Assembly: GCF_008727735.1 (NCBI RefSeq)
Contig: NZ_CP044227.1
Location: 2,739,001-2,803,000 of the forward strand
Length of the DNA: 64,000 nt
Source of the DNA: Flintibacter sp. KGMB00164
GTDB taxonomy: Bacteria; Bacillota; Clostridia; Oscillospirales; Oscillospiraceae
Direction: 5' to 3'
Part shown: one piece after another, positions 32,211 through 53,894 of the stretch
How positions within the stretch are numbered: the first letter of the stretch is position 1
Layout: each line of letters starts with the position of its first letter
The notes under the pieces: generated by a model
Seen by the model: the letters and a program-made list of their open reading frames with translations, nothing else
Told to the model about the DNA's origin: nothing
The model's database searches: none
Made by a program: the position numbers and the translations under genes

Positions 32211-32770
32211 GTTCCTTTTTGCTTGCCCAAAAAGGAACCAAAAAGGCCCCAGGGGTGTGGCTCCGACGAACGCCTCGCCATAGGCGGGCGTTCATAGTCA
32301 CCACACCCCCTGGACCCCCGATTACGGGGGACGCCCTCCAGGAAAACCTTCATGCCCTCCCGGCGGGCAAAGACATGATCGCTGGTTCTTCTTGCCTCGG
32401 GGGCACAGGCCCCTACCCGGTTTAAAATTGAAAGTACCTGTGTTGTACGAACACCGCCTACTCAGGCAAAACCGTGGCAGCTGAGCAATCATCGATGACG
32501 GCCGCACCAAACAGGTAGGGACGCACCAGGCGGTGTACGTTAGAATGGAAACGCTTTTAAATTTTGATGGCATAAGGGCCTAAGGTCCGAGTGTAGTAAG
32601 GCGCAGGGTCAAAGCTTAGGCCGCCGGAAGTAACCAAAAAACCAAAGGGACACGCTCCCGTAAGCGGGGGTCTGGGGGCAATGACTGTGAGCGCCGCCGC
32701 AGGCAAGGCGCTCACCGGAAGCGGCCCCCAGTCACTCTTTGGTTCCTTTCTGGTGACTCAGAAAGGAACC
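32211..32770 (+). repeat. Dispersed structured intergenic element, copy A
   Basis: This 560-bp element is bounded by perfect hairpins: GTTCCTTTTT / AAAAAGGAAC (32211-32238) and GGTTCCTTTC / GAAAGGAACC (32741-32770). It aligns along its length with the reverse complement of 53279-53894. Shared blocks include a hairpin GAACGCC / GGCGTTC (32268-32293), CCCCTGGACCCCCGATTACG, TGCCTCGGGGGCACAGGCCC, and a long-range pair ACACCGCCT (32451-32459) with AGGCGGTGT (32528-32536). No intact ORF is shared: an 83-codon minus-strand frame (32322-32573) is frame-broken in the other copy. No transposase or target duplication is recognisable. Confidence 0.8.
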
Positions 32771-32803
32771 CGCGCCGCAGGGCGGAATCTATATATAATA
32801 AAG

Positions 32804-32832
32804 GTGGGAGCGACCTAAGCAGTCACTCCCAC
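32804..32832 (-). terminator. Candidate terminator beyond the EIIC-like gene
   Basis: GTGGGAG (32804-32810) and CTCCCAC (32826-32832) form a stem; on the minus strand CTTTATTATATA follows. It lies about 85 bases past the stop, after a short repeat copy. Confidence 0.45.
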
Positions 32833-32855
32833 GAAAGTCTCTCTTACGGGCGCAG

Positions 32856-32914
32856 AAGGGAAACGAAGTTTCCCACAAAGTTCTTTTGCCTACTTTTCTT
32901 TCAAGAAAAGTAGG
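32856..32914 (-). repeat. Short dispersed hairpin repeat, copy 3 (inverted)
   Basis: On the minus strand CCTACTTTTC-TTGAAA-GAAAAGTAGG is followed by CAAAAGAACTTTGTGGGAAA and the hairpin GGGAAACTTCGTTTCCC. It is the best match to 10088-10160. It abuts the 3' end of the EIIC-like gene. Confidence 0.7.
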
Positions 32915-34021
32915 TCAAGAAAGCGCAAGGTCGCCTTCTTTGATCCAGCCAATCTTGCGGAAGAAGATGCCGAAGGCCCAGCACAGGACAGCAGGCAGAA
33001 TAAAGGAGATCAGAATCAGCCCCGCCCAGTCAAAGGCCGTGGGCGCAATGGCAACCGCGCCGTTGGCCAGGGCCTGCTCGCTGGGAGCCACCCAGCCCGT
33101 CCAGACGCCCAGCTGTCCGCACAGGCCGCAGGTGCCCATACCCGAGTTGATGGGCGCGCCGTTCATCTCCAATTTAAACAGACAGGTGGCAATAGGCCCG
33201 GTGATGGCGGAGGTGAGGATGGCAGGCAGCCAGATCTTCGGGTTCTTCACAATGTTGGGCATCTGGAGCATGGAGGTGCCGATGCCCTGGCTGACCAGGC
33301 CGCCCCAGCCATTCTCTTTAAAGGAGAGCACCGCAAAGCCCACCATGTTGGCACAGCATCCAGCCACCGCGGCGCCTCCCGCCAGGCCAGTGAGGGTGAG
33401 GGCGGCACAGATAGCCGCCGAGGAGATGGGCAGAGTGAGGGCAATGCCCACCAGAACAGACACCAGCATCCCCATCCAGAAGGGCTGAAGCTTGGTGGTC
33501 TGCATAATGAGCTGTCCAAAGGCACTGGCCGCCCCACCGATGGGGGGCGCGATGATCCAGGCCGCTCCGATGCCAACAAGGATAGTAACGATGGGCGTGA
33601 CCAGAATGTCGATCTTGGTCTCCTTGCTCACCGCCTTGCCAAATTCCGCGGCAATGATGGCCACAAACAGGACGGCCAGCGGCCCTCCTGCCCCACCCAG
33701 GGCGTTGCAGGCGTAGCCCACCGTCACAAGGGAAAAGAGCACCATGGGCGGCGCCTGGAGGGCGTAGCCGATGGCCACCGCCATGGCCGAGCCGCTCATA
33801 AAGGAGCACAGCCCACCCACGGTGTAGCCCACGTCATTGATGGTAATGATCTGGGCGGTAAGAAAGGGGATGCCGAACTGGGTCCCCAGGGTGTTGAGGA
33901 TGGTACCGATCAGCAGCGAGCAGAACAGGCCCTGGGCCATGGCGCCCAGAGCGTCGATGCCGTAGCGCTTGGCGGAGATAACAATGTTCTTCCGCTTCAT
34001 AAATTCCTGTAAGCGTCCCAT
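32915..34021 (-). CDS. PTS EIIC-like membrane transporter (PTS_EIIC_2 type)
   Basis: A 368-residue, Ala/Gly-rich membrane protein with about ten hydrophobic segments. Motifs such as FGIPFLTAQIITINDVGYTV, ALGGAGGPLAVLFVAIIAAE and NSGMGTCGLCGQLGVWTGW are typical of the standalone PTS EIIC-like family, which lacks EIIA/EIIB domains; none is encoded nearby. The substrate is unknown. The promoter carries a near-perfect palindrome also found at niaR, so a role in niacin or a related vitamin uptake is an inference worth testing. ATG 34021 chosen for GGGAGAG 7 bases upstream. Confidence 0.75.
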   Translation of the reverse strand: MGRLQEFMKRKNIVISAKRYGIDALGAMAQGLFCSLLIGTILNTLGTQFGIPFLTAQIITINDVGYTVGGLCSFMSGSAMAVAIGYALQAPPMVLFSLVTVGYACNALGGAGGPLAVLFVAIIAAEFGKAVSKETKIDILVTPIVTILVGIGAAWIIAPPIGGAASAFGQLIMQTTKLQPFWMGMLVSVLVGIALTLPISSAAICAALTLTGLAGGAAVAGCCANMVGFAVLSFKENGWGGLVSQGIGTSMLQMPNIVKNPKIWLPAILTSAITGPIATCLFKLEMNGAPINSGMGTCGLCGQLGVWTGWVAPSEQALANGAVAIAPTAFDWAGLILISFILPAVLCWAFGIFFRKIGWIKEGDLALS

Positions 34022-34043
34022 AGAATTCTCTCCCAAACAAAAT

Positions 34044-34105
34044 GTGGTATATAGGTGTCAAGACACGTGTATACCACATTGTACCGGATATTTCCGGTTT
34101 GTCAA
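34044..34105 (-). promoter_or_regulatory. Promoter and candidate NiaR operator of the EIIC-like gene
   Basis: Minus strand TTGACA (34100-34105), 16-base spacer, TACAAT (34078-34083). Immediately downstream, 34044-34077 is a 34-base inverted repeat with arms GTGGTATACACGTGTC and GACACCTATATACCAC around TT (three mismatched positions). Its core GTGTC-TT-GACAC resembles published NiaR sites rich in TGTC/GACA. A bound dimer would block the start of transcription. Confidence 0.7.
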
Positions 34106-34114
34106 CCTATTTCT

Positions 34115-34630
34115 TTATTCCCCCGGGTAGAGAAATCCCTCTGCCTTCAATCCAGCCAGCACCCGGCGGTAGCTGTCCTCGTCAGGACAGCGCAGGGTGT
34201 GAAGGTGGACTCCCCCGGTGAGATCGGACAACGGCTTGGCCTTCCGCTGAGAAACCAGACGGACAAACTCCTGCACATCATACCGGGAAGCCAGACGCAG
34301 CTGTCCCGTAAGCTGGCCGTACACCGGGTGTTCCACCACCACATCCATCACCTGGCAGCCCTGATCCACCATGATCTCCAGCTCCCGGGCCATGGCCTCC
34401 CCCGGATGGACGCAGGCCACGGTGCGCACCAGCCCGGTGGTCTCCTTGGGCAGCACGTAACCCCGCGGGGTGGCAGCAATGTCCAGTCCTGCCGCCCGCA
34501 GCAGGGCCACGTCCCCCACAATGATCTGGCGGCTGACGGAGAATTCCCGGGCCAGGGCGGCAGCACTCACCGGCGCTTTGGCCTCCTCTAAAATATGTGT
34601 GATTGTCTTTCTTCTGTGTGCAGCGTCCAT
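34115..34630 (-). CDS. niaR: Niacin-responsive repressor NiaR (HTH-3H)
   Basis: 171 residues. The N-terminal winged HTH_11 domain (about 5-60, SAAALAREFSVSRQIIVGDV) is followed by a 3H domain. The three histidine elements are VHPGE (His75), VEHPVYGQL (His101) and GGVHLHTL (His142/144), the nickel- and nicotinate-linked features of this family. NiaR represses NAD-precursor uptake and synthesis genes when niacin is plentiful. GGAGGTG precedes ATG 34630. Its own promoter holds a half-matching operator, suggesting autoregulation, and it sits next to the EIIC-like transporter. Confidence 0.93.
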   Translation of the reverse strand: MDAAHRRKTITHILEEAKAPVSAAALAREFSVSRQIIVGDVALLRAAGLDIAATPRGYVLPKETTGLVRTVACVHPGEAMARELEIMVDQGCQVMDVVVEHPVYGQLTGQLRLASRYDVQEFVRLVSQRKAKPLSDLTGGVHLHTLRCPDEDSYRRVLAGLKAEGFLYPGE

Positions 34631-34654
34631 GGCCGCACCTCCTGTCTGTTTGGT

Positions 34655-34695
34655 TGTCATGACAGGAGTGTACCACATCCCATCTGCGCGGGCAA
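34655..34695 (-). promoter_or_regulatory. niaR promoter with candidate NiaR operator
   Basis: Minus strand TTGCCC (34690-34695), 17-base spacer, TACACT (34667-34672). GTGGTACACTCCTGTC then ATGACA (34655-34676) shares the order GTGGTAnAC...TGTC.TGACA with the operator at 34044-34077. Confidence 0.6.
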
Positions 34696-34697
34696 GG

Positions 34698-34726
34698 TTG
34701 ACTTTCCCGCTTTCTTCCTTTAAAGT
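34698..34726 (+). promoter_or_regulatory. Promoter of the lipoprotein gene
   Basis: TTGACT (34698-34703), 17-base spacer, TAAAGT (34721-34726), divergent from niaR with the two -35 boxes nearly touching. Confidence 0.5.
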
Positions 34727-34802
34727 TAAAGTATCCAAGATTCGGACCGGGCGGTTCCCCGCCTGCCGCCACCCCCGCGCAAGGAAAGAGAGGAGATCGT
34801 CT

Positions 34803-35489
34803 ATGAAAAAACGCCACTTGTTTGCCGGAATTCTGGCCTGCGCGCTGACCCTGACCCTCGCTGCCTGCGGTCTGTCCGGAGCGGACGTGACCACCTATAT
34901 TCAGGGGGAACTGGACTGCACCTACAAAGGCCAGTACAGCCAGGAATATCTGGACCTGGTGGACGGCATGACGGAGGAGGACGCCAAGCAGCAGTATGAG
35001 GACAACGCCCAGGCCGAGGCCCAGCGTCTGCTGAACTATCTGGAGGTCTTTTACCCCAACGACGAGGTCAATGAGCGGGCCACCCAGCTGGTCAAGGATA
35101 TCTATGCCAAAGCCCAGTACTCCGTGGGCGAGGGCAACAAGCTCCAGGGCGGAGACTTTGCCGTGGAGGTCATCCTCTCCCCCATCGAGGTGTTCCATCT
35201 AATCCCCGATGAGACGTACGCCGAGATCTGGAGCCAGGTATGCGCGGACAACGGCACCACCCCCGACGAGGCCAGCACCCTGAGCGAGGCGGCCTATCAG
35301 GAACTGGACGCGGAGTACGCCCTGCGCATGATCGAGAAGGTGGAGCAGGTCCTGCCCCAGGCCACCTACGGCCAGGACCAGTCGGTAATGCTCCAGCTGA
35401 AGCTGGACGGGGACTACTACTCCCTGGTGTCCAGCGGCTGGACCACGCTGGACGATATGGTCATCGACTACACCGGCGACTATATGTAA
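34803..35489 (+). CDS. Putative lipoprotein of unknown function
   Basis: 228 residues. The signal peptide MKKRHLFAGILACALTLTLA ends in lipobox LAAC (Cys22), so the protein should be lipid-anchored outside the membrane. The mature part is acidic and Tyr/Gln-rich (GELDCTYKGQYSQEYLDLV, MTEEDAKQQYEDNAQAEAQ) and looks mostly helical, without enzymatic motifs. GAGGAG precedes the ATG. Similar DUF-type lipoproteins are common in gut Clostridia. No operon partner: proS has its own promoter. Confidence 0.7.
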   Translation: MKKRHLFAGILACALTLTLAACGLSGADVTTYIQGELDCTYKGQYSQEYLDLVDGMTEEDAKQQYEDNAQAEAQRLLNYLEVFYPNDEVNERATQLVKDIYAKAQYSVGEGNKLQGGDFAVEVILSPIEVFHLIPDETYAEIWSQVCADNGTTPDEASTLSEAAYQELDAEYALRMIEKVEQVLPQATYGQDQSVMLQLKLDGDYYSLVSSGWTTLDDMVIDYTGDYM

Positions 35490-35524
35490 CCCCGTCCTTT
35501 CCCTTCGCTTTTGCGGTTTCCGCC

Positions 35525-35553
35525 TTGACTTTTCCAGCCGAAATTTATACAAT
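35525..35553 (+). promoter_or_regulatory. Sigma-A-type promoter of proS
   Basis: TTGACT (35525-35530), 17-base spacer, TACAAT (35548-35553). The 52-base leader is too short for a T-box. Confidence 0.7.
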
Positions 35554-35605
35554 AAACGGTACGAGTTTTCCAAGCCCGATCTTATAGAAAAGGACTGATT
35601 TTGAT

Positions 35606-37048
35606 ATGGCTCAGAATAACAAGAAGCAAGTGGAGCAGATCACCGATATGGAGGTGGACTTCGCCCAGTGGTACACCGACGTGTGCAAGAAGGCGGAGCT
35701 CATCGACTACTCCTCTATCAAGGGCGTGTTTATCTACCGTCCCTACGGCTACGCCATCTGGGAGAATATCCAGGCGGAGCTGGACAAGCGGTTTAAGGAG
35801 ACCGGCCACGAGAACGTGTACCTGCCCATGCTGATCCCTGAGAGCCTGCTGCAGAAGGAGAAGGACCACGTGGAGGGCTTTGCCCCCGAGTGCGCCTGGG
35901 TGACCTACGGCGGCAGCGAGAAGCTGGAGGAGCGCTACTGCATCCGTCCCACCTCTGAGACCCTGTTCTGCGAGCACTACAAGAGCATCATCCACTCCCA
36001 CCGTGACCTGCCCAAGCTGTACAACCAGTGGTGCAGCGTGCTGCGCTGGGAGAAGACCAGCCGTCCCTTCCTGCGCCACCGTGAGTTCCTGTGGCAGGAG
36101 GGCCACACCATGCACGCCACCGAGGAAGAGGCGCGCCAGGAGACCCAGCAGATGCTCAACATCTACGCCGACTTCCTGGAGAACGTGCTGGCCATGCCCG
36201 TGGTCAAGGGCCGCAAGACCGACAAGGAGAAGTTCAACGGCGCCGAGGAGACCTACACCGTGGAGTGCATGATGCACGACAAGAAGGCTCTCCAGTCCGG
36301 CACCAGCCACTACTTCGGCGACGGCTTCGCCCGCGCCTTTGACATCACCTTCACCGGCAAGGACAACCAGCTCCACTATCCCCATCAGACCTCCTGGGGC
36401 GTGTCCACCCGTATGATCGGCGGCATCATCATGACCCACGGCGACAACAACGGCCTGGTGCTGCCCCCCCGCATCGCCCCCATCCAGGCTATGGTCATCC
36501 CCGTGGCCCAGCACAAGGAGGGCGTGCTGGACGCTGCTACAGACCTGCTCAACCGTCTGAAGGCCGCCGGCATCCGTGCCAGCATGGACGCCTCCGACCA
36601 GTCCATGGGCTGGAAGGCCGCCCAGTATGAGATGAAGGGCGTGCCCCTGCGCGTGGAGATCGGCCCCAAGGATATGGAGAAGGGCCAGTGCTGCATCTGC
36701 CGCCGTGACTCCGGCGAGAAGATCTTCGTGCCTCTGGCCGAACTGGAGACCACCGTGCCCCAGCTGCTGGACGCGGTACACAACGGCCTCTACGAGCGGG
36801 CCAAAAAGAACCTGGAGGACCACACCCGCGTGTGCCTGACTCTGGACGAGGTCAAGGAGTTTATGGAGACCGAGGGCGGCTTTGCCAAGACCATGTGGTG
36901 CGGCGATCTGGAGTGCGAGCTCAAGATGAAGGAGCAGGCCGGCGTCACCTCCCGGTGCATGCCCCTAGAGCAGGAGAAGGTGTCCGACACCTGCGTGTGC
37001 TGCGGCAAGCCCGCCAAGCACATGATCCTGTGGGGCGTGGCCTACTGA
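35606..37048 (+). CDS. proS: Prolyl-tRNA synthetase, archaeal/eukaryotic type
   Basis: 480 residues, the ProRS form without the editing (INS) domain. Class II motifs: motif 1 region [18 protein letters not shown], motif 2 [20 protein letters not shown] (about residues 148-168), motif 3 [20 protein letters not shown]. The anticodon-binding domain (about 290-390) is followed by the type-specific C-terminal domain with clustered cysteines (CCICRR, CGDLEC, CVCCGK) that usually bind zinc, and the terminal Tyr (WGVAY) of this class. Length matches the group (about 480). Confidence 0.97.
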
Positions 37049-37070
37049 TCCCTTTATTTCCCGATGATTT

Positions 37071-37110
37071 CCCCCGTCCCGGGCCTTTTGCCCGGGCGGG
37101 GGAATTTTGT
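37071..37110 (+). terminator. Intrinsic terminator of proS
   Basis: CCCCCGTCCCGGGC (37071-37084) pairs with GCCCGGGCGGGGG (37090-37102), then AATTTTGTTT. Confidence 0.8.
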
Positions 37111-37213
37111 TTCCGGCCATTCCCACCGAAGCGCGCGCACAAATGTGAACTTTCTGTGTACTTTTCACAAAGTTCAGCAACTTCCACAGATTGTTCTGGC
37201 TTTTATCCACTTT

Positions 37214-37372
37214 TTCCTGTATAATAAGTCTACATAAAGGCCCCGCGTTCCGTTCCCCTTCGGCACGCAGGGCTTCCTTGCGCCCTGTGAGACGCCGGGG
37301 CCGAGAGGAGGTCTGAACCGCGTCTGTTGTCGGAGAGAGAACTTCACCATTTAAGAAAGTGAGTGTGTTGTC
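37214..37372 (+). promoter_or_regulatory. Promoter and structured leader of the AGCS symporter
   Basis: TATAAT (37220-37225) has only a weak -35 (TGGCTT). The leader contains a large stem-loop: GGCCCCG near 37239 pairs with CGGGGCC near 37297, enclosing a second hairpin GCAGGGC / GCGCCCTGT. GAGAGGAGGTCTGAACCGCG follows. The upstream stretch 37130-37215 is AT-rich with TTTATCCAC and TTTTCACAA. I do not recognise a known riboswitch class. Confidence 0.45.
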
Positions 37373-38779
37373 ATGCTTGATATGATCATCAACGAGATCA
37401 GCAACATCATGTACTCCTACCTGCTGATCATCCTGCTGCTGGCAGTAGGCCTGTACTTCACCTTCCGCACCAAGTTCATCCAGTTCCGTATGTTCGCCGA
37501 GTCCATCCGCGTGGTGGGCGAGAAGCCGGACAAGGCCGGCTCCATCTCCTCCTTCCAGGCTCTGATGGTGTCCACCGCCTCCCGCGTGGGTACCGGCAAC
37601 ATCATCGGCATTTCCACCGCCATCTGCCTGGGCGGCTTCGGCGCCGTGTTCTGGATGTGGATCATCGCCATCATCGGCGGCGCTTCCGCCTTCATCGAGT
37701 CCACCCTGGCTCAGATCTATAAGCGCCGCAACCCCGAGACCGGTGAGAGCTACGGCGGTCCCTCCTACTACATCGAGGCTGCCCTCCACTCCCGTCCCCT
37801 GGCCGTCATCTTCGCTGTGGCCCTGATCCTCACTTACGCCGGCGGCTTCAACATGCTGGCCTCCTACAACCTGCAGTCTACCTTCAGCGGCTACTCCTTC
37901 TATAACGCAGAGAGCACCCCCTGGGTCATCGGCGCCATTCTGGCGGTCCTGGTGGGCTACTGCGTCATGGGCGGCGGCAAGCGCATCATTAAGTTCACCT
38001 CCACCCTGGTGCCCTTCATGGGCGGCCTGTACGTGCTGGTGTCCCTGGTGGTGCTGGTGATGAACATCAGCAACCTGCCCTATGTGTTCGGCCGCATCTT
38101 CTCCGAGGCCTTTGACTTCCAGGCCATCTTCTCCGGCTTTGCCGGCTCCGCTATGATGTACGGCATCAAGCGCGGCCTGTACTCCAACGAGGCCGGTGTG
38201 GGCTCTGCTCCCAACGCCGCCGCCTCCGCCAACGTCAGCCACCCCGTCAAGCAGGGCCTGGTGCAGATGCTCTCCGTGTTCATCGACACCCTGCTCATCT
38301 GCTCCGCCACCGCCTTCATGCTGCTGTGCTCCGGCGTGGAGCCCACCGCCGAGCTGGAGGGCGCTCCCTATGTTCAGGCTGCCCTGTCCGCCACCTTCGG
38401 CCCCATCGGCCCCATCTTCATCACCGTGGCCATGGTGCTCTTTGCCTTCACCACCCTGATCGGCAACCTGTACTATGTGGATAACTGCCTGGCCTACATC
38501 GTGAAGAAGGTCCCCGCCAAGGAGTTTATGATCCTCTTCCGCATCGACGCCATGATCCTCATCTTCATCGGCGCCGGCATGCAGATCAGCACCGTGTGGA
38601 ACCTGGCCGACGTGCTCATGGGCATTATGGCTATCCTGAACCTGCCCGTCATCGTCATCCTGGCCCGTCCCGCCCTGGCTGCTCTCAAGGACTACACCAC
38701 CCAGAAGAAGCAGGGCAAGAACCCGGTCTTCAAGGCTGCCAGCATCGGTCTGAAGGAAAAGACCGACTACTGGAACTAA
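37373..38779 (+). CDS. Alanine/glycine:cation symporter (AGCS family)
   Basis: 468 residues with about eleven membrane helices. It has the AGCS features STASRVGTGNIIGISTAICL (about 68-86), GGFGAVFWMWIIAIIGG, YGGPSYYIEAAL and GIKRGLYSNEAGVGSAPNAA, which form the Na+/amino-acid site. It imports alanine, glycine or similar amino acids with sodium. The ribosome-binding site is weak (GAAAGTGAG), unusual beside its neighbours, and a long structured leader precedes it, so expression may be controlled after initiation. Confidence 0.92.
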   Translation: MLDMIINEISNIMYSYLLIILLLAVGLYFTFRTKFIQFRMFAESIRVVGEKPDKAGSISSFQALMVSTASRVGTGNIIGISTAICLGGFGAVFWMWIIAIIGGASAFIESTLAQIYKRRNPETGESYGGPSYYIEAALHSRPLAVIFAVALILTYAGGFNMLASYNLQSTFSGYSFYNAESTPWVIGAILAVLVGYCVMGGGKRIIKFTSTLVPFMGGLYVLVSLVVLVMNISNLPYVFGRIFSEAFDFQAIFSGFAGSAMMYGIKRGLYSNEAGVGSAPNAAASANVSHPVKQGLVQMLSVFIDTLLICSATAFMLLCSGVEPTAELEGAPYVQAALSATFGPIGPIFITVAMVLFAFTTLIGNLYYVDNCLAYIVKKVPAKEFMILFRIDAMILIFIGAGMQISTVWNLADVLMGIMAILNLPVIVILARPALAALKDYTTQKKQGKNPVFKAASIGLKEKTDYWN

Positions 38780-38793
38780 GCAAATTTTCAAAA

Positions 38794-38828
38794 AAGCGCC
38801 GTGGAGCAATGCTCCGCGGCGTTTTTTC
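38794..38828 (+). terminator. Intrinsic terminator of the AGCS gene
   Basis: CGCCGTGGAGCA pairs with TGCTCCGCGGCG (38797-38821), flanked by A-run and TTTTTT. Confidence 0.88.
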
Positions 38829-38923
38829 TGCGTTGCGCAAAAAAACGTTCCGGGTTATGATGGAATGGACATAACTTGGACACAGGCAGGGTGTACCCTG
38901 AACACAGAAAGGGAGGATGGGCG

Positions 38924-39592
38924 ATGGACCGGATTCTTGTGGTAGAGGACGAGCGAGCAATGCGGGAGATCATCCGGGACTATCTCACCGCCCACGGTCT
39001 GGAGTGCGATCTGGCCCGGGACGGCCAGGAGGCCCTGGAGCTTCTGGAGGAGCAGGACTACGATGCGGTGGTGCTGGATGTCCTCATGCCCCGACTGGAC
39101 GGCTTCGGTGTGTGCCGGGCAGTGCGCCGCCAAAGCTCTGTGCCCATTTTGTTTCTCACCGCCCTGGGCGGCGAGGAGGAGACGCTCCGTGGCTATGCGC
39201 TGGGAGCGGATGACTATGTAACCAAGCCTTTCTCCCTGGCCGTGCTGCTGGCCAAGCTCCAGGCTCTCATCCGCCGCAGCCGGGGAGAGCGGAAAACCGG
39301 TGTCCTCTCCTGCGGGGCCATCCAGGTTGACACCGGCGCCCGCCGGTGTACGGCAGCGGGACAGGAAATCAAGCTCTCCCCCCGGGAGTACGAGCTGCTC
39401 CTATGCCTTCTGCGCAATCAGGGGCAGGTGCTCTCCCGCGCCCAGCTTCTGGACAAGGTGTGGGGGCTGGACTTTGAGGGGGACGACCGGGCGGTGGATG
39501 TACGGGTGCGCAGTCTCCGCGCCGCTCTGGGCAAGGCGGGCAAGCAGATCAAGACGGTATTCAAGGCGGGCTACCGATTGGAGGAGGGATGA
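38924..39592 (+). CDS. OmpR-family response regulator
   Basis: 222 residues. Receiver domain (1-118): acidic pocket VVEDE (6-10), phosphoacceptor Asp52 in VVLDVLMP, and ADDYVTKPF with the conserved Lys. The winged-helix DNA-binding domain (about 128-220) has LSPREYELLLCLLRNQGQVL and VRSLRAALG. GGGAGG is 7 bases before ATG 38924. Overlaps the kinase start by 4 bases (ATGA), so the two are translationally coupled. Target genes unknown; the MATE and BceAB-like exporters downstream are candidates by proximity only. Confidence 0.92.
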   Translation: MDRILVVEDERAMREIIRDYLTAHGLECDLARDGQEALELLEEQDYDAVVLDVLMPRLDGFGVCRAVRRQSSVPILFLTALGGEEETLRGYALGADDYVTKPFSLAVLLAKLQALIRRSRGERKTGVLSCGAIQVDTGARRCTAAGQEIKLSPREYELLLCLLRNQGQVLSRAQLLDKVWGLDFEGDDRAVDVRVRSLRAALGKAGKQIKTVFKAGYRLEEG

Positions 39593-45343: not shown

Positions 45344-45381
45344 GCGATGATCCTCTCCTTTTGCCGGACAGTTCCGGCTTG

Positions 45382-45755: not shown

Positions 45756-45890
45756 CACATCCTTTCCCGGGGCGCAGCCCCTTTGATTCCCGGTTAGTGT
45801 GTCCCATTTCCTGGGGGGATATTCCAGTCCCCGCTGCGCATGAGTCCCCCATCCCGGCGCATACACTGACACCGGAAAGGGGGAGTTTTC

Positions 45891-45995: not shown

Positions 45996-46877
45996 CAACA
46001 GATCCAGGTCCTCCACCCCCAGACCGGGCTGGAGGGCCAGGTTGATCCCGTAGGCGATGACCTTGGAGAGGTCGCCCACCTGGCTGTCGATGTCCTTGGG
46101 AGTGACCAGCAGCTCGCCCTCCCGGCCCAGGGGGGGCAGGTCGTCCCGCCCCAGCAGGTCGGCGGCCAGAGTGGCCCCGTAGACCACCGTGGGCACCCCT
46201 ACCGCCAGCACCGGCACCCCCAGGGTCTTCTCATCCAGGGCAAAGCGGTGGTTGCCCACCCCGGAGCCGGGGACGATGCCGGTGTCGGAGATCTGCACCG
46301 TGCGGCACAGCCTGTCCAGGGAGCGGGAGGCAAGGGCGTCCACCGCAATGACCCAGGCGGGTTTCAAACTGCGGCACACCGCCTGCACCAGCTCCCCGCT
46401 CTCCATCCCCGTGGTGCCCAGCACCCCGGCGGCCAGGGAGGCCACAGGCCGAAACGAGCCAAAGTGCTCCGGCACCCCCTCCACCAGGTGACGGGTGACC
46501 AGGGTGTACTCGTGGACCTTGGGCCCGATGGCGTCGGGGGTGATGGCCCGGTTCCCCAGCCCTACCACCAGGGCGCCGCCCTTCTCCCCCTCCAGTCCCA
46601 TCAGCTCCCGCAGCACCCCGGCCACCGCCCGGGCGCCCCGACCGAAGGCGTCCTCCTCCCGGCGCTGCAGGCCGTCCATGGTCAGCGTCACATAGGTGCC
46701 CGCCGGTTTGCCCAGAGCCTGCTCCCCCCGCTCATCCAGGATGTGCACGGTCTCTGAGCGGAAACCCTCCCGCTCCCCGGTCCGGGCCTCCACGCCCTCC
46801 AGCTTGCTGGTCTCCCCCGCCCGCTCCTGCCACAGCTCCCGGGCCTCCAGAGCCAGGTCGGTACGCCGCTGCTCCAT
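45987..46877 (-). CDS. gpr: Germination protease GPR
   Basis: 296 residues, M63-type aspartic-like endopeptidase that degrades small acid-soluble proteins during spore germination. The N-terminus MEQRRTDLALEARELWQERA matches the propeptide region normally removed by autoprocessing. Core motifs VVGLGNRAITPDAIGPKVHE, GVLGTTGMESGE and VDALASRSLDRLCRTVQISD are conserved. AAAGGAG precedes ATG 46877. In Bacilli gpr neighbours rpsT, as here (rpsT is divergent, 201 bases away). Strong evidence that the organism forms spores. Confidence 0.95.
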   Translation of the reverse strand: MEQRRTDLALEARELWQERAGETSKLEGVEARTGEREGFRSETVHILDERGEQALGKPAGTYVTLTMDGLQRREEDAFGRGARAVAGVLRELMGLEGEKGGALVVGLGNRAITPDAIGPKVHEYTLVTRHLVEGVPEHFGSFRPVASLAAGVLGTTGMESGELVQAVCRSLKPAWVIAVDALASRSLDRLCRTVQISDTGIVPGSGVGNHRFALDEKTLGVPVLAVGVPTVVYGATLAADLLGRDDLPPLGREGELLVTPKDIDSQVGDLSKVIAYGINLALQPGLGVEDLDLLLS

Positions 46878-46987
46878 GTTCCCCACTCCTTTTCCTTCCA
46901 TATCTTGTGGTCTTGCCACATTTCTCTGCTAGCATTTGCGGCAGCGGAAATTTTATCCGATTTTCTCATTCTTTTTGAAAAAAAGTG

Positions 46988-47016
46988 TTGCATTTTCCGC
47001 CGCGATATGCTACAAT
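46988..47016 (+). promoter_or_regulatory. Sigma-A-type promoter of rpsT
   Basis: TTGCAT (46988-46993), 17-base spacer, TACAAT (47011-47016), 62 bases before the start codon. Confidence 0.75.
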
Positions 47017-47078
47017 ACATATCCGCACAGGATTATTGTGCTAATTTTAACGATTAAAAATCGGAGGAGGTGTTTGGT

Positions 47079-47342
47079 TTGCCGAATATCAAGTCTGCCA
47101 AGAAGCGTGTGCTGGTTTCCCAGACCAAGGCCATGCAGAACAAGGCCGCGAAGTCCGCGCTGAAGACCGACATCAAGAAGTTTGAGGCCGCGGTGGCGGA
47201 AGGCAACCGCAGCGAGGCCGATGTTGCTTACAAGGTGGCTGTGAAGGCGGTGGACAAGGCTGCTGCTAAGGGGCTGCTGCACAAGAACAACGCTGCCAAC
47301 AAGAAGAGCAGCATGACCATCAAGCTGAACAAGCTGGCCTAA
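47079..47342 (+). CDS. rpsT: 30S ribosomal protein S20
   Basis: 87 residues beginning MPNIKSAKKRVLVSQTKAMQ (TTG start 47079) with GGAGGAGG 8 bases upstream; the TTG gives the family's usual N-terminus MPNIKSAKKR, so the upstream extension is ignored. The Lys/Ala-rich helical body and LLHKNNAANKKSSMTIKLN end are typical. TTG starts are common for rpsT. Confidence 0.96.
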   Translation: MPNIKSAKKRVLVSQTKAMQNKAAKSALKTDIKKFEAAVAEGNRSEADVAYKVAVKAVDKAAAKGLLHKNNAANKKSSMTIKLNKLA

Positions 47343-47357
47343 TTTTCTGCAAGAGGA

Positions 47358-47385
47358 AAGCCGTCTGCATCGCAGGCGGCTTTTT
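47358..47385 (+). terminator. Intrinsic terminator of rpsT
   Basis: AAGCCGTCTGC (47358-47368) pairs with GCAGGCGGCTT (47372-47382), one G-T wobble, then TTTTT. Confidence 0.85.
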
Positions 47386-47468
47386 GCGTTTTTCTCGACC
47401 CCTTCCCCCTGGTTTTATCCCGCCCTTCTGCTATACTGGGAGTATTGATTTGAGAGGAGGCCGACCCC

Positions 47469-48347
47469 ATGTGGCGCGCACTGCTGGAGAAAAAGCCGGT
47501 GGCCTTTGCCCTGGACTTAAAAGAAACCTACGACCGGGTGGGCGTGGCCCGGGCGGCGGCGGCCCTGTCCTATTTTCTTATCCTGACCCTGTTTCCCCTG
47601 CTCATGTGCGTCAACTTCTTCATCGGCCTGCTCCCCCTGGAGCCGGAGGACGTCTTTTTTGCCCTGGAGCCCCTGCTGCCCCAGGAGAGTCTGAACATTA
47701 TTCTGGACTACCTCACCTACGTCTCCTCCATCCCCCAGAATCAGTCTACCCCCCTGCTGCTGGCCAGCCTGTTTACCATTCTGCTCTCCGCCTCTGCCGC
47801 CCTGCGCACCCTGTTTCAGACCATGGACGAGCTCTATGAGGTCCCCCGGAACAACAGCATCAAGCGCCTGGTCCTCAGTGTGGTGCTCTCCCTGCTGTTC
47901 CTGCTGACCCTGTACCTATCCATTATCGTGGTCTTTACCGGCGACTGGTTCTTCCAGGCTCTGGAGCGGACTCTGCCCCAAAAAATTCTGGAGCTGATCC
48001 CGCTGCACATGCTGGCCTCTTTTTGGACCCAGCTGCGCTATGTGCTGCTGTTCTGCTTTGTCCTGCTGCTGGTGCTGGCGGTGTACCGTCTGGGCACCCC
48101 CCGCGCCCTGCACGTCAAGGGCACCATCCGCCTCACCGCCCTGCTCTCCGCCCTGGCCATGGTGGCCTGCTCGGTGCTCTTTTCCTGGTTTATCGACATG
48201 TCCTCCCGCTATTCCCTGGTGTACGGCTCTTTGGCCTCCCTCATCATCCTGCTGGTGTGGCTCTACTTCTGCGGCAACATCCTGGTGATCGGCGCGGTGG
48301 TGGGCCAGGTGTGGATCCGGGGCCGCTGGCGCGGGGATCCCATATAA
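47469..48347 (+). CDS. YihY/BrkB-family membrane protein
   Basis: 292 residues with six membrane helices. The family hallmarks are present: DRVGVARAAAALSYFLILTL near the N-terminus, the central PRNNSIKRLVLSVVLSLLF and the C-terminal YGSLASLIILLVWLYFCGNI followed by LVIGAVVGQVW. The family was once annotated as RNase BN in error; its real role, possibly transport or envelope maintenance, is unknown. GAGAGGAGG precedes the ATG. The next gene starts 129 bases downstream and may share its transcript. Confidence 0.88.
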   Translation: MWRALLEKKPVAFALDLKETYDRVGVARAAAALSYFLILTLFPLLMCVNFFIGLLPLEPEDVFFALEPLLPQESLNIILDYLTYVSSIPQNQSTPLLLASLFTILLSASAALRTLFQTMDELYEVPRNNSIKRLVLSVVLSLLFLLTLYLSIIVVFTGDWFFQALERTLPQKILELIPLHMLASFWTQLRYVLLFCFVLLLVLAVYRLGTPRALHVKGTIRLTALLSALAMVACSVLFSWFIDMSSRYSLVYGSLASLIILLVWLYFCGNILVIGAVVGQVWIRGRWRGDPI

Positions 48348-48476
48348 CAAACCATACTGCGGCTCGTCAAAAGGTTGTTTTTGGCGGGCCGCTTGCTCTT
48401 TCCTTCTTCCAGTTTTTGTGCTAAACTGAAAAACAACAATTCTTTACCACTTTACTCCCAGAAAGGCGGGACGTCT

Positions 48477-51400
48477 ATGCATGAAAAATTGATCCGCCAG
48501 CTCTCCAGCCAGGTGGCCGACGCCCTGGCAGAACAGGAGCTGGCCTGCGCCCCAAACCGCCGCGCCGCTCTGGCCCTGCTGAAGACCCCCGGCTGGGCCG
48601 AGGAGCTGGACCAGCTGCTTCCCATCCGCACCCGCCTGGAGTGTGATCAGGTGCTCCAGGTGTGCGCCCCCATCCTGGCCAAACTCTCCCCGGTGCCCGA
48701 GGACGGCTGGCTGTCCTTCTGCTACCGGTATATCCGCGCCTGTCTGTATCCCCAGGGCAACTTCGCCCCCGACGCCCAGGAACATGTGGAGGGCGCCCGG
48801 TTCTATCTGACTGTCCTCCAGGTGCTGCTGGACTACGAGCGGCAGGTGCTCCCCTTTGACCCCCTCATGGACTTTCAGTTCCTCACCCCCGAGGAGTATA
48901 CCCCCTGCGACTGCGGCCGGGAGTATGCCAAGCTCCTGGAGTGCTACCGGAAGGAGTACGTCTACGAGCTCATGCGCTTAGGGCTGGAGGTCACCCCCTT
49001 CAAGACGCTGGGCCACATCGCCGGGGTCCACTACATCGCCATGGCGGTGGCCCGGGGATTGAAGCAGGCCGGGGTGGACATCGATCTGGCCCTCATCTCC
49101 GGCTCTGCCGCTGCCCACGACATCGGCAAGTTCGGCTGCCGCCCCGGAGAGCGGGTGCCCCACCTGCACTACTACTACACCGACCAGTGGCTGCTGGAGC
49201 GCCACCTGGACAACATCAGCCACATCGCCTCCAACCACTCCACCTGGGATCTGGAGCTGGAGTCCCTGTCGGTGGAGTCTCTGTGTCTTATCTACGCCGA
49301 CTTCCGCTCCAAGCAGAGCCGGGATGCCGACGGCAACGAGATCACCGTCCTCTACCCCTTGGACGAGTCCTTCCAGGTCATCCTCTCCAAGCTGGAGAAT
49401 GTGGACCCCTCCAAGCGGCGGCGGTATGAGTTCGTCTACGGCAAGCTCCACGATTTTGAGGACTACATGCGCGCCCTGGGCGTGGACGTGGACCTCACCG
49501 GTCAGCCCCAGCAGCCCCGTCCCCACAAGGACCCCTCCCTCATGGGACCGGGAGAAACGGTGGAGGGTCTGACCCTGCTGTCGGTAGGCCACAGCCTGCG
49601 CCTGATGCACATGCTCTCCAACGAGCGCAAGTTCGGCAACATCATTGAGGCCGCCCGCTCCACCAAGGACTGGAAGCAGCTGCGGGCCTACCTCAACGTG
49701 TTCCAGGAGTACTTCACCTACCTGTCGGTGCGCCAGAAAACTCAGGCGCTCTCCTTCCTCTACGAGCTGCTGGTCCACCGCGAGGGTGATATCCGCCGTC
49801 AAGCCGGCTCTCTCATCGGTCTGATCATCGCCCGCTTCCACCTGGTCTACCGCAAGGAGGTCCCGGCGGACGAGGAGAACGACCCCGCCGAGGAGGTCCC
49901 CTTCACCCTGTGGGAGCAGTACCTGGACATGCTCATCTACCCCGACCACAAGACCACCCAGCAGCAGCGCCACCACATCGGCTACACCCTGAAGCTGGTG
50001 CTGGAGTCCCTGCTGAAGTACGCCCGTCCCGGGGACGTGCCCCGGTTTGTAGGCGCCTTCCTGCGCTACTTCCACGACCCCCAGCAGAAGGACGCCGACA
50101 CCGCCTTCACCCTGCTGGACGCGGCCTGGTATCTCCCCTCCAAGTACTATAACGACGAGGTGCGCCAGCTGCTTATCAACTTTGCCGCCTACTGGGTGGG
50201 GCAGAACGACCTGCGCCTCACCGTGGCCTCCCTCATGTTCCTGCGGGAAGCCGCCCGCAATCTCTCCCGCAGCAACCCCCAGATGGAGCAGATCGTCTCC
50301 ATCGCCAACGGGGTCACCCAGAAAAGTCTGGCCGTCACCTTCCTGCAGTACCGCATTCTCCAGCGGGCCGGCAAAGACACCTCCGCCCACAAGCGGGCGC
50401 TCTACGACCAGGACATCACCAGCGAGGTCTTTTTGGACAACCTGAAGACTGCCACCCCCTGGGTGGTCAAGGTGGTGGGCGTGGAGCTGCTGCGGGACCA
50501 GGTGGAGCACGGCCTCCAGGAGCACATGCTCCACATCTGCACCCACTACTCCAACCTCATCAAGGTCTCTGAGCGGGTGGTAGTGCGCTGCAACGCCGGC
50601 GACGCTCTGGTGCATATCCTGCCCATGCTCCGCCGGGACCAGCGCAACGAGGTAGTCGTGGAGCTGGGCAAGGGTCTGGAGATGGGACAGTACGAAATTT
50701 CCAAGTACATCCCCGAATATCTGGGCCAGGCCGCCCTGTACCTCTACCCCAGCGAGCTGGACGAGCAGGTGCTGTGGCTCAAGACCCTGCTGGGCTCCCC
50801 CAACGACTCCGCCGTCTCCGGCGCGCTGAACACCATCGGAGTGCTGCTCCAGCACTACCCCGCCTACCGGGGCCGCTTTGTGGAGTCCGCCCAGAACTAT
50901 GAGTCCCGCCGCCAGGAGCTGCTGGGTCTCCTGCTCCAGGGATTGGCCCACTACCGTCCCCCGGTGCGCCAGGAGGCGTTGCTGGTCACCGGCAAGCTGC
51001 TGTTTGAGAGCAACGTCCTCTCCATGGACGAGAAGGCCCACCTGTTCTCCCTGAGCTACCGTAAACTTCTCTTCCTCATCCAGGAGGCTCCGGTGCAGGA
51101 CGACGACATGACCTTCTTCTACCGCGCCGCCGCCCTGGCCCACATCAACCGCTTCATCGCCCTGTGGCGGCTGGACCACGGTCCCTTCTCCTTCACGGTG
51201 CCCAAGAAGGTGGCCTTCTTCCCCGGCACTTTTGACCCCTTCACCCTGTCCCACAAGGGCATTGTCCACGCCATCCGGGACCTGGGCTTTGAGGTCTACC
51301 TGGCGGTGGACGAGTTCTCTTGGTCCAAGAAGGCCCAGCCCCACCTCATCCGCCGGCAGATCGTCAACCTGTCGGTGGCAGGGGACTTCCACGTCCACCT

Positions 51401-53273
51401 CTTCCCCGACGACATCCCGGTGAACATCGCCAACCCTGCCGACCTCAAGCGGCTGCGCAACCTCTTCCCCGACCAGGAGGTCTATCTGGTGGTGGGCAGC
51501 GACGTGGTGGGCAACGCCTCCTGTTTCCAGGCCGCCCCCCGTCCCTGGTCCATCCACTCCATGAACCTCATTATCTTCCGCCGTGCTGGCCAGCCCCCCC
51601 TGCCCAGCACCGAGCAGCTGAATCTTAAGGGCGATGTCATTCAGCTTCAGCTGCCTCCCCACCTGGAGGATATCAGCTCCACCCGCATCCGGGAAAATGT
51701 GGACCTGAACCGGGACATCTCCAACCTCATCGACCCGGTGATTCAGGACTTTATCTATCAAAACGGCCTGTACCTCCGGGACAGCCAGAACAAGCCAGTG
51801 CTGGGTTCCGGCGATCTGACCTTCCAGTGGGTGGACGAGCCGGACGAGCTGCTTGTCCAGGAGCTCACCGCCGGCCGGCCCGACCGGGACGCCCTGCGGG
51901 AGGGAATTCTCCGCGGCCGGGACCGTCTGGTCCTGCTGCGCTCCAGCACCCAGAACCAGCTGCTGGGCTTCCTCAGCTTCCGGTACCTGTCGGCCTCCCA
52001 GCTCTTTGGCGCCCTGCGGGATACCGAGCTGGCCAACCGCATCCGCCTGCGCTCGGCTGGCACCACGCTGATCATCACCTCTGCCATGGCCGACACCTCC
52101 GATCCTCTGAAGGACTATCTCCAGCTTCTCTTCACCGAGGTGCTGGCCAAGGCGCTGGCCGACGACTGCATTTACGGCGTCTACCGCCCCTGCGGCGCTC
52201 TGCCTGACCCGATCCTGGAGGACACCCTGGCCCGCCAGGGCTTCCTGCGCCGGGAGGGAGACACCCCCATCTGGGAGGTGGACATGAGCGCTCCCACCGT
52301 TCTCATCCAGAACCTGGAGACCACCATTCAGGACCCCCTCAACCGCAACCCCAAGGTGCTCTCCGCCATCCAGCGTGGACACCGGCGGCTGCAGATGGCC
52401 CTGACCAAGCTCTACCCCCGGTTCCTGGTGCTCACCTTGTCCTCGGATATTATCCACCAGCGGCTGCTGGAGATGATCACCACCTACAACGAGGTGCCCT
52501 CTGTCCCCACCACCCCCCGGAAATTGGGGAAAAATATGTGCGTTCCCTACGGAAAAATGCTCCGCGGCAAGATCGTACCCAATACCGTGACCAAAACTAT
52601 CCACACCGACAAGGTATTTACCCCCGATCTCAGCCAGAGCACCATGGAGGCCTTCCCCCATTACGCCCCCATCCCCTGCCAGATCCGCACCATCAAGTCC
52701 TTCAACCGTCCGGTCATCTTGGTGGACGACATCATGCACCCCGGCTTCCGTATCAAGGCGCTGGACCCCATCCTCCGCAAGGAGGAGGTAGACATCCGTA
52801 TGGTGCTGGTGGGTCTGCTCTCCGGCCACGGCCGTGACTTGATGGACGCTCAGGGCCGCCCGGTAGACAGCGTGTACTACCTGCCCCGGCTGCGGGAGTG
52901 GTTTGTGGAATCCACCCTGTACCCCTTCATCGGCGGCAACACGGTGCGCCGTTCCACCTCCCCGGTACCCGGCATGCTCCCCGGCATCAACCACATCCTG
53001 CCCTACGCCTCCCCCACCTTCCGCAGCGAGTACAGTGAGGACGCCGTGTTTGAACTGTCCCGCTGCTGCCTGGAGTCGGCCCGGGACGTGATTTCCACCC
53101 TGGAACAGGAATACCGCATCCTCTATGGGCGCAACCTGACTCTGAACCGCCTGCCTGAGGCTGTCATCCTGCCCCTGTGTCCCGATAAGGGCACTTGTCT
53201 CCATTACGACCCCAATTTGGCTGCGTCGGTGTATCTGGAGAACGATTTGGAGCAGCTGCTGCGCACGCATTAA
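48477..53273 (+). CDS. 1598-residue multidomain protein: HD, helical repeats, NadD-like nucleotidyltransferase, GNAT-like, PRTase-like
   Basis: A very large cytosolic protein with no signal or membrane segments. (1) HD-type domain, about 150-310: GVHYIA (His185), SAAAHDIGKFG (His214-Asp215), SNHSTW (His254) and YADF. (2) About 370-900: helical, HEAT/ARM-like repeats. (3) Nucleotidyltransferase, about 910-1085: VAFFPGTFDPFTLSHKG (912-928; (T/H)xGH motif as T-L-S-H926) and EDISSTRIRENV (ISSTxIR at 1066-1072), as in NadD/NMNAT. (4) About 1110-1270: GNAT-like fold by appearance (LLGFLSFRYL...DTLARQGFLRR). (5) About 1300-1590: PRPP-site-like RPVILVDDIMHPGFRIKAL (Asp1417-Asp1418). AAAGGCGGG precedes ATG 48477. 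Similar long 'cytidyltransferase-domain' proteins occur in related Clostridia, function unknown. NAD or nucleotide metabolism is a guess from domains 3 and 5. Confidence 0.8.
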   Translation: MHEKLIRQLSSQVADALAEQELACAPNRRAALALLKTPGWAEELDQLLPIRTRLECDQVLQVCAPILAKLSPVPEDGWLSFCYRYIRACLYPQGNFAPDAQEHVEGARFYLTVLQVLLDYERQVLPFDPLMDFQFLTPEEYTPCDCGREYAKLLECYRKEYVYELMRLGLEVTPFKTLGHIAGVHYIAMAVARGLKQAGVDIDLALISGSAAAHDIGKFGCRPGERVPHLHYYYTDQWLLERHLDNISHIASNHSTWDLELESLSVESLCLIYADFRSKQSRDADGNEITVLYPLDESFQVILSKLENVDPSKRRRYEFVYGKLHDFEDYMRALGVDVDLTGQPQQPRPHKDPSLMGPGETVEGLTLLSVGHSLRLMHMLSNERKFGNIIEAARSTKDWKQLRAYLNVFQEYFTYLSVRQKTQALSFLYELLVHREGDIRRQAGSLIGLIIARFHLVYRKEVPADEENDPAEEVPFTLWEQYLDMLIYPDHKTTQQQRHHIGYTLKLVLESLLKYARPGDVPRFVGAFLRYFHDPQQKDADTAFTLLDAAWYLPSKYYNDEVRQLLINFAAYWVGQNDLRLTVASLMFLREAARNLSRSNPQMEQIVSIANGVTQKSLAVTFLQYRILQRAGKDTSAHKRALYDQDITSEVFLDNLKTATPWVVKVVGVELLRDQVEHGLQEHMLHICTHYSNLIKVSERVVVRCNAGDALVHILPMLRRDQRNEVVVELGKGLEMGQYEISKYIPEYLGQAALYLYPSELDEQVLWLKTLLGSPNDSAVSGALNTIGVLLQHYPAYRGRFVESAQNYESRRQELLGLLLQGLAHYRPPVRQEALLVTGKLLFESNVLSMDEKAHLFSLSYRKLLFLIQEAPVQDDDMTFFYRAAALAHINRFIALWRLDHGPFSFTVPKKVAFFPGTFDPFTLSHKGIVHAIRDLGFEVYLAVDEFSWSKKAQPHLIRRQIVNLSVAGDFHVHLFPDDIPVNIANPADLKRLRNLFPDQEVYLVVGSDVVGNASCFQAAPRPWSIHSMNLIIFRRAGQPPLPSTEQLNLKGDVIQLQLPPHLEDISSTRIRENVDLNRDISNLIDPVIQDFIYQNGLYLRDSQNKPVLGSGDLTFQWVDEPDELLVQELTAGRPDRDALREGILRGRDRLVLLRSSTQNQLLGFLSFRYLSASQLFGALRDTELANRIRLRSAGTTLIITSAMADTSDPLKDYLQLLFTEVLAKALADDCIYGVYRPCGALPDPILEDTLARQGFLRREGDTPIWEVDMSAPTVLIQNLETTIQDPLNRNPKVLSAIQRGHRRLQMALTKLYPRFLVLTLSSDIIHQRLLEMITTYNEVPSVPTTPRKLGKNMCVPYGKMLRGKIVPNTVTKTIHTDKVFTPDLSQSTMEAFPHYAPIPCQIRTIKSFNRPVILVDDIMHPGFRIKALDPILRKEEVDIRMVLVGLLSGHGRDLMDAQGRPVDSVYYLPRLREWFVESTLYPFIGGNTVRRSTSPVPGMLPGINHILPYASPTFRSEYSEDAVFELSRCCLESARDVISTLEQEYRILYGRNLTLNRLPEAVILPLCPDKGTCLHYDPNLAASVYLENDLEQLLRTH

Positions 53274-53278
53274 AACGT

Positions 53279-53894
53279 GTTCTTTCCAGCGATGGAAAGA
53301 ACCAAAGATCGCCGGGGGACGCCTTCGGGGAACACTTCGCCTTCGGCGGTGTTCCCAGGCGGCTTGTCCCTACCCCCTCTGGCCCTTCGGTCCATCTCCC
53401 CCTGACAGGGGGAGTCGGCCCCTGGACCCCCGATTACGGGGGCGTGTCCCTTTGGGCATTTGATAAGTTTCGGCGGCCTAAGTTTTGACCGTGCGTTCCT
53501 CTCTTCTCAGCCCACAGGGGCCTTTTGCCATCAAAATTTTCAGGCTGTTATTTCTAGCGTACACCGCCTGGTACATCCCTTCCTGTTGGGTGCGGCGGTG
53601 GTCGAATTGCCGCCAGCTATTGCCCAGCCGCCCTGGCTCCGCCAGAGTAGGCGGTGTCCGTACAGCGCAGACACTTTAAATTTTCACCCGGTAGGGGCCT
53701 GTGCCCCCGAGGCAAGAAGGACCATACGGTCTTGTCTTTGCCCGCCGGACGAAATTGCCAAGAAAGCTGGAGGGCGTCCCCCGTAAATGGGGCCTGGGGG
53801 AAAGGTGACTATGAACACCCGCCTTAGGCGAGGTGTTCATCGGAGCCGTCCCCCAGCGATTCTTTGGTGACTTTCTGATCGCTCAGAAAGTCAC
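53279..53894 (-). repeat. Dispersed structured intergenic element, copy B (inverted relative to A)
   Basis: 616 bp bounded by hairpins GTTCTTTCC / GGAAAGAAC (53279-53302) and GTGACTTTCT / AGAAAGTCAC (53867-53894). Its reverse complement aligns with 32211-32770, with about 70 extra bases near 53350-53420. The internal hairpin GAACACC / GGTGTTC (53813-53838) differs from copy A (GAACGCC / GGCGTTC) by a compensatory G-C to A-T change, and the long-range ACACCGCCT (53561-53569) / AGGCGGTGT (53649-53657) pair is kept exactly. It begins 6 bases after the 1598-residue gene and ends about 60 bases before the next. Frames of 65-108 codons inside it are not conserved in copy A. Confidence 0.8.

What the first reader, a model, noticed from the sequence alone, without database searches (positions are those of the whole stretch)
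32211..53894. Inverted pair of ~0.6-kb structured intergenic elements with compensatory changes
Copy A (32211-32770) and the reverse complement of copy B (53279-53894) align from end to end. Both are bounded by hairpins at each end. The terminal hairpin sequences differ, but pairing is kept (GGTTCCTTTC/GAAAGGAACC against GTTCTTTCC/GGAAAGAAC). An internal stem changes from GAACGCC/GGCGTTC to GAACACC/GGTGTTC, a compensatory pair. A 9-bp long-range pair (ACACCGCCT/AGGCGGTGT) enclosing about 70-80 bases is identical. The shared frames are broken between copies. This pattern fits selection on nucleic-acid structure: a large non-coding RNA, or a hairpin-ended mobile element moved by an enzyme elsewhere. 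It matches no element class I know by name.
Basis: seen in the sequence. Interest (0 to 1): 0.8.

Follow-up and report, generated by a model that had tools for sequence, protein, structure and literature searches.

The report
Origin-clustered, sequence-swapping palindromic DNA elements
The two copies belong to a family of about 33 non-coding, hairpin-built DNA elements, most of them close to this gut bacterium's replication origin, which keep their places between genes while their sequence modules are reshuffled among them; this resembles known mobile repeats but in a pattern I have not seen described.

Summary
In detail: A (32211-32770) and B (53279-53894, minus) align end to end with compensatory stem changes. 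They are 2 of 33 family loci found in the genome; 29 lie in a 244-kb arc around dnaA. Each full element is a quasi-palindrome of two related ~280-nt halves. Each end is a "head": a hairpin, an A-rich linker, about 4 nt complementary to the hairpin loop, then further stems. 65 of 92 heads keep >=4 nt of that complementarity (best of 1,000 permutations: 30). Stems are almost wholly Watson-Crick with very few G-T, pointing to DNA-level structure rather than an RNA gene. No Rfam match; no shared reading frame. Related heads occur in 41 of 64 genus genomes and 20 of 197 of the order (own included). In sister species G014 about 21 of 29 sites are also occupied, yet elements at shared sites mostly resemble each other no more than random pairs: positions persist, sequences are swapped. 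Origin clustering recurs in G014 and G011, not clearly in G016, G010 or G041. Best reading: non-autonomous mosaic palindromic mobile elements (MITE/REPIN/BOX-like), now long-lived residents; enzyme and any origin function unknown.

The parts
32211..32770 (+). Copy A, full-length element (left half + inverted right half)
32211..32338 (+). Left head of A: P1 hairpin 32211-32238, A-rich linker, GGC complementary to the loop (3 nt only in this copy), further stems
   Evidence: R1 121.5 bits
32268..32293 (+). Internal hairpin GAACGCC/GGCGTTC (P3) with compensatory change in B
32451..32459 (+). 5' arm of central long-range pair ACACCGCCT
   Evidence: nearly invariant in 31 elements
32528..32536 (+). 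3' arm of central long-range pair AGGCGGTGT
32646..32769 (-). Right head of A (inverted)
   Evidence: R1 115.6 bits
32770..32787 (.). Outer hairpin module (CCGCGCCGCAGGGCGG type), found next to many heads
   Evidence: read
53279..53894 (-). Copy B, full-length element with an extra module of about 54 bp
53770..53894 (-). Left head of B
   Evidence: R1 129 bits
53279..53387 (+). Right head of B (inverted); short-stem allele GTTCTTTCC/GGAAAGAAC
   Evidence: R1 66 bits
53649..53657 (-). 5' arm of central pair in B
53561..53569 (-). 3' arm of central pair in B
53365..53418 (-). Extra hairpin module (CCGACTCCCCCTGTCAGGGGGAG...), also in the elements about 25, 35 and 77 kb from dnaA

Best explanation
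The copies are members of a family of non-coding, non-autonomous, mosaic palindromic DNA elements (MITE/REPIN/BOX-like in kind). SHOWN: an element is two paralogous half-units facing each other; each end is a hairpin plus A-rich linker plus a short segment complementary to the hairpin loop, followed by further stems; stem alleles change by paired Watson-Crick changes; in this lineage most elements sit at old, shared intergenic sites around oriC, while their modules have been exchanged between sites. INFERRED: the heads act as folded single-stranded DNA (or cruciform) when replication or transcription opens the DNA. A recombinase supplied in trans, not identified, recognised the fold rather than the sequence and spread the family; in this species change is now mainly short-patch ectopic conversion or template switching between copies, which swaps modules and sometimes flips an element without moving it. 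Retention close to the origin may reflect the stable gene order there, a dosage or proximity effect on conversion, or an unknown function.
For: 33 loci, 29 in the origin arc. Head alignment of 78 sequences: 19 predicted pairs, 13 with both-sided changes. Loop/downstream complementarity >=4 nt in 65 of 92 heads, permutation maximum 30; 27 of 46 distinct combinations, maximum 14; >=4 nt in 14 of 19 heads read from other genomes, the other 5 with 3 nt, which chance often gives. P1 1,029 of 1,034 and P3 789 of 813 pairs Watson-Crick, in left and right heads. No shared frame: lengths between conserved anchors fall in all three frames (6/9/8, 5/13/5, 7/10/6 of 23 copies). In G019 eight copies (77.5-95.0% alike, median 88%) lie in unrelated flanks, with TAAATTTTAGTTTAT-type inverted ends in most. 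Sister species G014: 16 of 29 sites shared by a strict script, about 21 on my reading; the ortholog ranks first among 28 G014 elements in only 3 of 22 rows; within-species identity 0.718 and 0.705 against 0.663 between; exact tracts up to 98 bp between elements about 70% alike.
Against: No transposase or recombinase was linked to the family: Y1 transposase (PF01797) gave no match in G010, G018, G066, which carry heads (G018 is only 85% complete), and matches in G057, G060, G077, which gave none. No consistent target-site duplication seen, and four presence/absence sites between G000 and G014 are not precise to the element ends. No very recent copy pair was found: even the G019 copies differ by 5% or more. 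The G019-type outer repeats in G040 also bound a separate shorter repeat family, so mobility there may be borrowed. Conserved unpaired core segments are more than a MITE needs.
Confidence: 0.57

Rival explanations
1. Origin-domain sites: the elements are kept by selection as cis-acting DNA that organises, anchors or insulates the origin region, like parS or the RacA sites of Bacillus (RacA sites recalled).
For: 29 of 33 loci within -147..+98 kb of dnaA; in G014 26 of at least 32 loci in the arc; 6 of 9 loci near the origin in G011; some intervals are occupied in three to five species; a control repeat is less clustered, 8 of about 21 sites in the arc.
Against: G016 has 6 loci, 2 within 122 kb of dnaA, both weak matches; in G010/G041 only about 4-6 of 20 windows around top-scoring heads match origin-arc genes; on my reading 8 of 29 sites are empty in G014. 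The control repeat is also enriched near the origin. Old insertions in a stable region would look similar.
Confidence: 0.2
2. Hairpin upkeep by mutation: polymerase template switching in quasi-palindromes repairs stems to perfect pairing, so the compensatory changes need no selection.
For: Very few G-T or A-C intermediates, as expected from one-step arm copying; such switching can create and maintain hairpins (PMC8794818, abstract and opening text read).
Against: Does not explain conserved unpaired segments (CAAA linker, core motifs), the loop/downstream arrangement seen in several genomes, spread to new sites, or copy number. May well contribute.
Confidence: 0.25
3. Large structured non-coding RNA present in ~29 origin-proximal genes.
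For: Strong folding (z about -8), paired changes, conserved core. The A-C excess in heads (17 against 4 G-T) would be G-U if the opposite strand were transcribed.
Against: Few wobble-type pairs in all (21 of 1,847) against a terminator control; both strands fold equally; 3 of 17 rows flipped between species; no Rfam match at gathering score; no promoter-like match inside copy A, the one copy scanned.
Confidence: 0.1

Closest known systems
Bacterial MITEs
   Same: Short, non-coding, inverted ends, many intergenic copies; dispersed copies with inverted outer ends in G019
   Different: The ~560-nt interior is conserved too; ends are hairpin plus loop-complement modules with many alleles; no target-site duplication or autonomous partner found
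REPINs / BIMEs (REP elements with RAYT)
   Same: Inverted palindromic units, mosaic arrangement, long persistence as an intragenomic population (PMC8049555, abstract read)
   Different: About 560 nt and many stems rather than two short REPs (recalled); Y1/RAYT transposase does not track with the family
Pneumococcal BOX elements
   Same: Structured, dispersed, slow transposition, judged parasitic (PMC3049150, abstract read); modular (recalled)
   Different: Module exchange at fixed sites and origin clustering are not mentioned in that abstract
Stem-loop repeat families of a 40-genome survey (PMC2267715, passages read)
   Same: Mostly intergenic families sharing a predicted fold
   Different: Not compared by sequence; 'pseudoknot' does not occur in its text
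IS200/IS605 ends
   Same: End hairpins with short base-pairing beside them act as single-stranded DNA (recalled)
   Different: Here the pairing is between hairpin loop and downstream segment; the two ends are inverted relatives; no Y1 gene in some carriers
parS / RacA sites
   Same: Repeated palindromic DNA concentrated near oriC (recalled)
   Different: Far larger and sequence-diverse; parS sites exist separately 19 kb from dnaA

Membership tests
MITE | Short (about 600 bp or less) and without an open frame | tested here: met
   23 copies of 536-646 bp; no shared frame
MITE | Terminal inverted repeats | tested here: met
   inverted heads; outer repeats of about 14 bp in G019
MITE | Target-site duplication | tested here: inconclusive
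   none consistent by eye in 8 G019 copies; TA at both ends of most
MITE | Autonomous transposon with the same ends | tested here: inconclusive
   11 intervals between facing heads hold only short frames (139 aa or less), none identified; outer repeats searched in two genomes only
REPIN/RAYT | RAYT (Y1) transposase in the genome | tested here: not met
   no PF01797 match in G010, G018, G066; G000 itself has 7 matches
REPIN/RAYT | REP sequence with conserved tetranucleotide | not tested
   no REP consensus search made
Known structured RNA (Rfam 15) | Covariance-model match at gathering score | tested here: not met
   one search lists 5 sub-threshold matches
Structured RNA in general | Stems tolerate G-U on the transcribed strand | tested here: inconclusive
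   very few on either strand, slight excess for the opposite strand
Structured RNA in general | Transcript exists | not testable with these tools
   no RNA data
parS | TGTTNCACGTGAAACA-type site in the element | tested here: not met
   in 359 kb scanned only three sites, about 19.3 kb upstream of dnaA, outside elements

The most novel reading that the evidence does not exclude
A new class of DNA element whose ends are DNA pseudoknot-like folds recognised by shape, held at an ancient set of sites around the replication origin where position is conserved and sequence is continually exchanged, serving the origin domain (folding, segregation, or a recombination network confined to it).
Probability: 0.18. 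Interest if true: 0.88.

Novelty: new variant of a known kind. Interest (0 to 1): 0.62.

Why it matters
It offers 29 natural, site-fixed, sequence-divergent copies around one origin and a sister species with most of the same sites filled by other alleles: a system to see whether hairpins evolve by selection or by template switching, how exchange without rearrangement works between ~70% identical repeats, and why repeats gather at a replication origin. If a shape-reading recombinase exists, it would add to the few known that read folded DNA.

Tried and rejected
Rejected: known Rfam RNA; phage or plasmid cargo (A against phages and plasmids, a core pattern against viral contigs: no match); coding element; Y1/RAYT-driven family; terminator function as the main role (many elements follow a separate terminator, read by eye); DnaA-box or parS carriers. 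Led nowhere: target-site duplication and precise empty sites; gene-orientation context from a crude ORF picker, which I do not trust; a pattern scan of named genomes returned only one MAG, so relatives stay mostly unnamed; eight paper searches listed no description of this family, which covers only the open library and the terms used; I saw listings, three abstracts and passages of two papers.

Rows dropped and limits: one search used 76 of the 80 heads listed plus 2 from other genomes; one search kept 92 of 99 head hits (those starting within the first 6 model positions); its stem finder favours Watson-Crick pairs; one search kept 31 of 33 elements; alignment A2 holds one row (p40) in the wrong orientation and was used for no count. 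Arc limits used for the probabilities were set from the data, so those P values are too small. One search scored 150 of 1,290 candidates. Of 48 G014 matches, 32 are shown; searches cover most of the rest. One search matched 16 sites by rule; five more are my reading.
Full report
OBSERVATION. The window is positions 2,739,001-2,803,000 of a single-contig genome of 2,917,795 bp. Contig position 1 lies in dnaA: the frame there is 96% identical to the G011 stretch that matches the DnaA family; dnaN and recF follow (names recalled). So the origin is there.

FAMILY AND PLACE. Searches with A and B and with a covariance model of the ends (R1: 57 heads over 50 bits, 52 in the arc, 5 outside) give 33 loci: 29 between -147 and +98 kb of dnaA (8.4% of the genome) and 4 elsewhere (about 0.386, 1.656, 2.221, 2.246 Mb). 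For arc limits set from the data the binomial probability is about 1e-27. Orientation is mixed. A different hairpin repeat of the same genome is less concentrated: 8 of about 21 sites in the arc by my merging of overlapping hits (Fisher P 2e-4), but it too is enriched there. One element lies between dnaA and dnaN.

ANATOMY. The 23 full-length copies used measure 536-646 bp; others are half-length (~280 bp). A full element is a left half followed by the reverse complement of a related right half. Each half starts with a head: P1 hairpin (9-11 bp, loop ~6), A-rich linker CAAAGA/CAAAAA, a short segment complementary to the P1 loop, a G/C stem enclosing hairpin P3, and a CCCC...TTTACGGGG hairpin. 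The two halves meet at a nearly invariant pair ACACCGCCT/AGGCGGTGT around conserved unpaired segments (31 of 33 elements). In two G010 elements the matching pair appears to be GCGCCTG(G)/(C)CAGGCGC (my reading).

STRUCTURE UNDER CONSTRAINT. In 78 heads RNAalifold predicts 19 pairs, 13 with changes on both sides and few on one side only. Loop/downstream complementarity is >=4 nt in 65 of 92 heads, against at most 30 in 1,000 permutations; over 46 distinct combinations 27 against at most 14. One recurring allele (TTTGCC loop with TGCCC) lacks a full match at that place, an exception. P1: 1,029 of 1,034 pairs Watson-Crick, 1 G-T, 4 A-C; P3: 789 of 813, 3 G-T, 13 A-C, 8 other. Terminator-like hairpins of the same DNA: 1,990 Watson-Crick, 76 G-T, 31 A-C, 94 other in 212 hairpins, found with a more tolerant rule. 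Wobble-type pairs are thus few in heads, and their slight A-C excess would favour the opposite strand if any RNA were involved. Single strands fold about 8 SD better than shuffles as RNA on both strands and as DNA. I read this as structure of the DNA itself. Whether loop pairing and P1 can form together (6-nt linker over 11 bp) was not modelled.

SISTER SPECIES. G014 (in GTDB: uncultured Oscillospiraceae MAG BRZ_EE__bin73) is largely collinear around the origin at about 78-96% DNA identity. A strict script matches 16 of 29 sites, 14 of 17 rows in the same orientation; reading the alignments where they run into the element gives about 21 of 29, with 8 empty. Five arc sites are G014-only. G014 has 26 loci in the arc and at least 6 elsewhere, two of these at -165 to -172 kb. 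At shared sites the elements are 60-80% identical, and the ortholog ranks first among 28 G014 elements in only 3 of 22 rows (the other ranks run from 3 to 27); within-species pairs (0.718, 0.705) are more alike than between-species pairs (0.663). Elements at different sites share exact tracts of up to 98 bp in G000, and one of 108 bp between species (400 of 812 between-species pairs sampled). So sites persist while modules are exchanged. Four presence/absence sites include flanking intergenic DNA and show no clean junction.

WIDER SPREAD. R1 matches in 41 of 64 genus genomes at E <= 0.01 (31 by my count at E <= 1e-4) and in 20 of 197 genomes of the order at E <= 0.001, own genome included in both. 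In G011 (complete, dnaA at position 122), 6 of 9 loci lie within -93..+59 kb (interval set from the data). Gene for gene, the interval at -10.5 kb is occupied in G000, G014, G011, G010 and, with one flank seen, G041; the interval between the frames at 3.9-5.1 and 6.1-8.1 kb in G000, G014, G010, G041; 11.7 kb in G000, G041 and, with one flank seen, G010; 39.9 kb in G000, G014, G011. Against a general rule: in G016 (dnaA at 1.371 Mb) 2 of 6 loci are within 122 kb, and the one at +12 kb is not in an interval used in G000; of 20 windows around top-scoring heads in G010 and G041, about 4-6 match origin-arc genes and the rest do not. Origin concentration is thus a property of some lineages.

MOBILITY. 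G019 holds eight examined relatives of 514-573 nt head to head, 77.5-95.0% alike, in unrelated flanks, most with TAAATTTTAGTTTAT-type repeats at both outer ends; in G040 the same repeats also bound shorter units. In G030, of another family of the order, the element sits inside longer chains of hairpin modules. No transposase was linked.

MECHANISM. Shown: structure, distribution, site persistence, module exchange. Inferred: DNA folding during replication or transcription; a trans-acting recombinase in the past; present change mainly by short conversion or template switching, which can itself mend stems (PMC8794818). Why the origin: not settled.

VERDICT. A real family of structured DNA elements, scattered through the order, in kind close to MITEs, REPINs and BOX, with two unusual features: allele-rich loop-paired ends, and fixed origin-proximal sites with sequence turnover.

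Noticed in passing
window 775-877 and 2494-2612 (-): Two TPP riboswitches about 1.6 kb apart.
   Followed up: no
window 32002-32079 (-): S10-Clostridia ribosomal protein leader just before copy A.
   Followed up: no
window 32891-32914: Hairpin TACTTTTCTTTCAAGAAAAGTAGG, a separate genome-wide repeat (about 21 sites), also within 300 bp of three of the four out-of-arc loci.
   Followed up: partly
window 48375-53273 (+): One 1,632-aa open frame of unusual length beside copy B.
   Followed up: no
G000 about 19.3 kb upstream of dnaA (L073): Three perfect parS sites within about 100 bp (motif recalled).
   Followed up: no
G040, many contigs: Pairs of TAAATTTTAGTTTAT-type repeats mostly 126-258 bp apart, often also at contig ends: a separate MITE-like family.
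   Followed up: partly
L276-L288 (G030): Element embedded in chains of further hairpin modules with compensatory alleles filling most of the 851-bp windows.
   Followed up: partly
G007, many places: Fifteen equal-scoring weak DnaA-like matches in 277-aa frames, perhaps an insertion sequence's ATPase.
   Followed up: no
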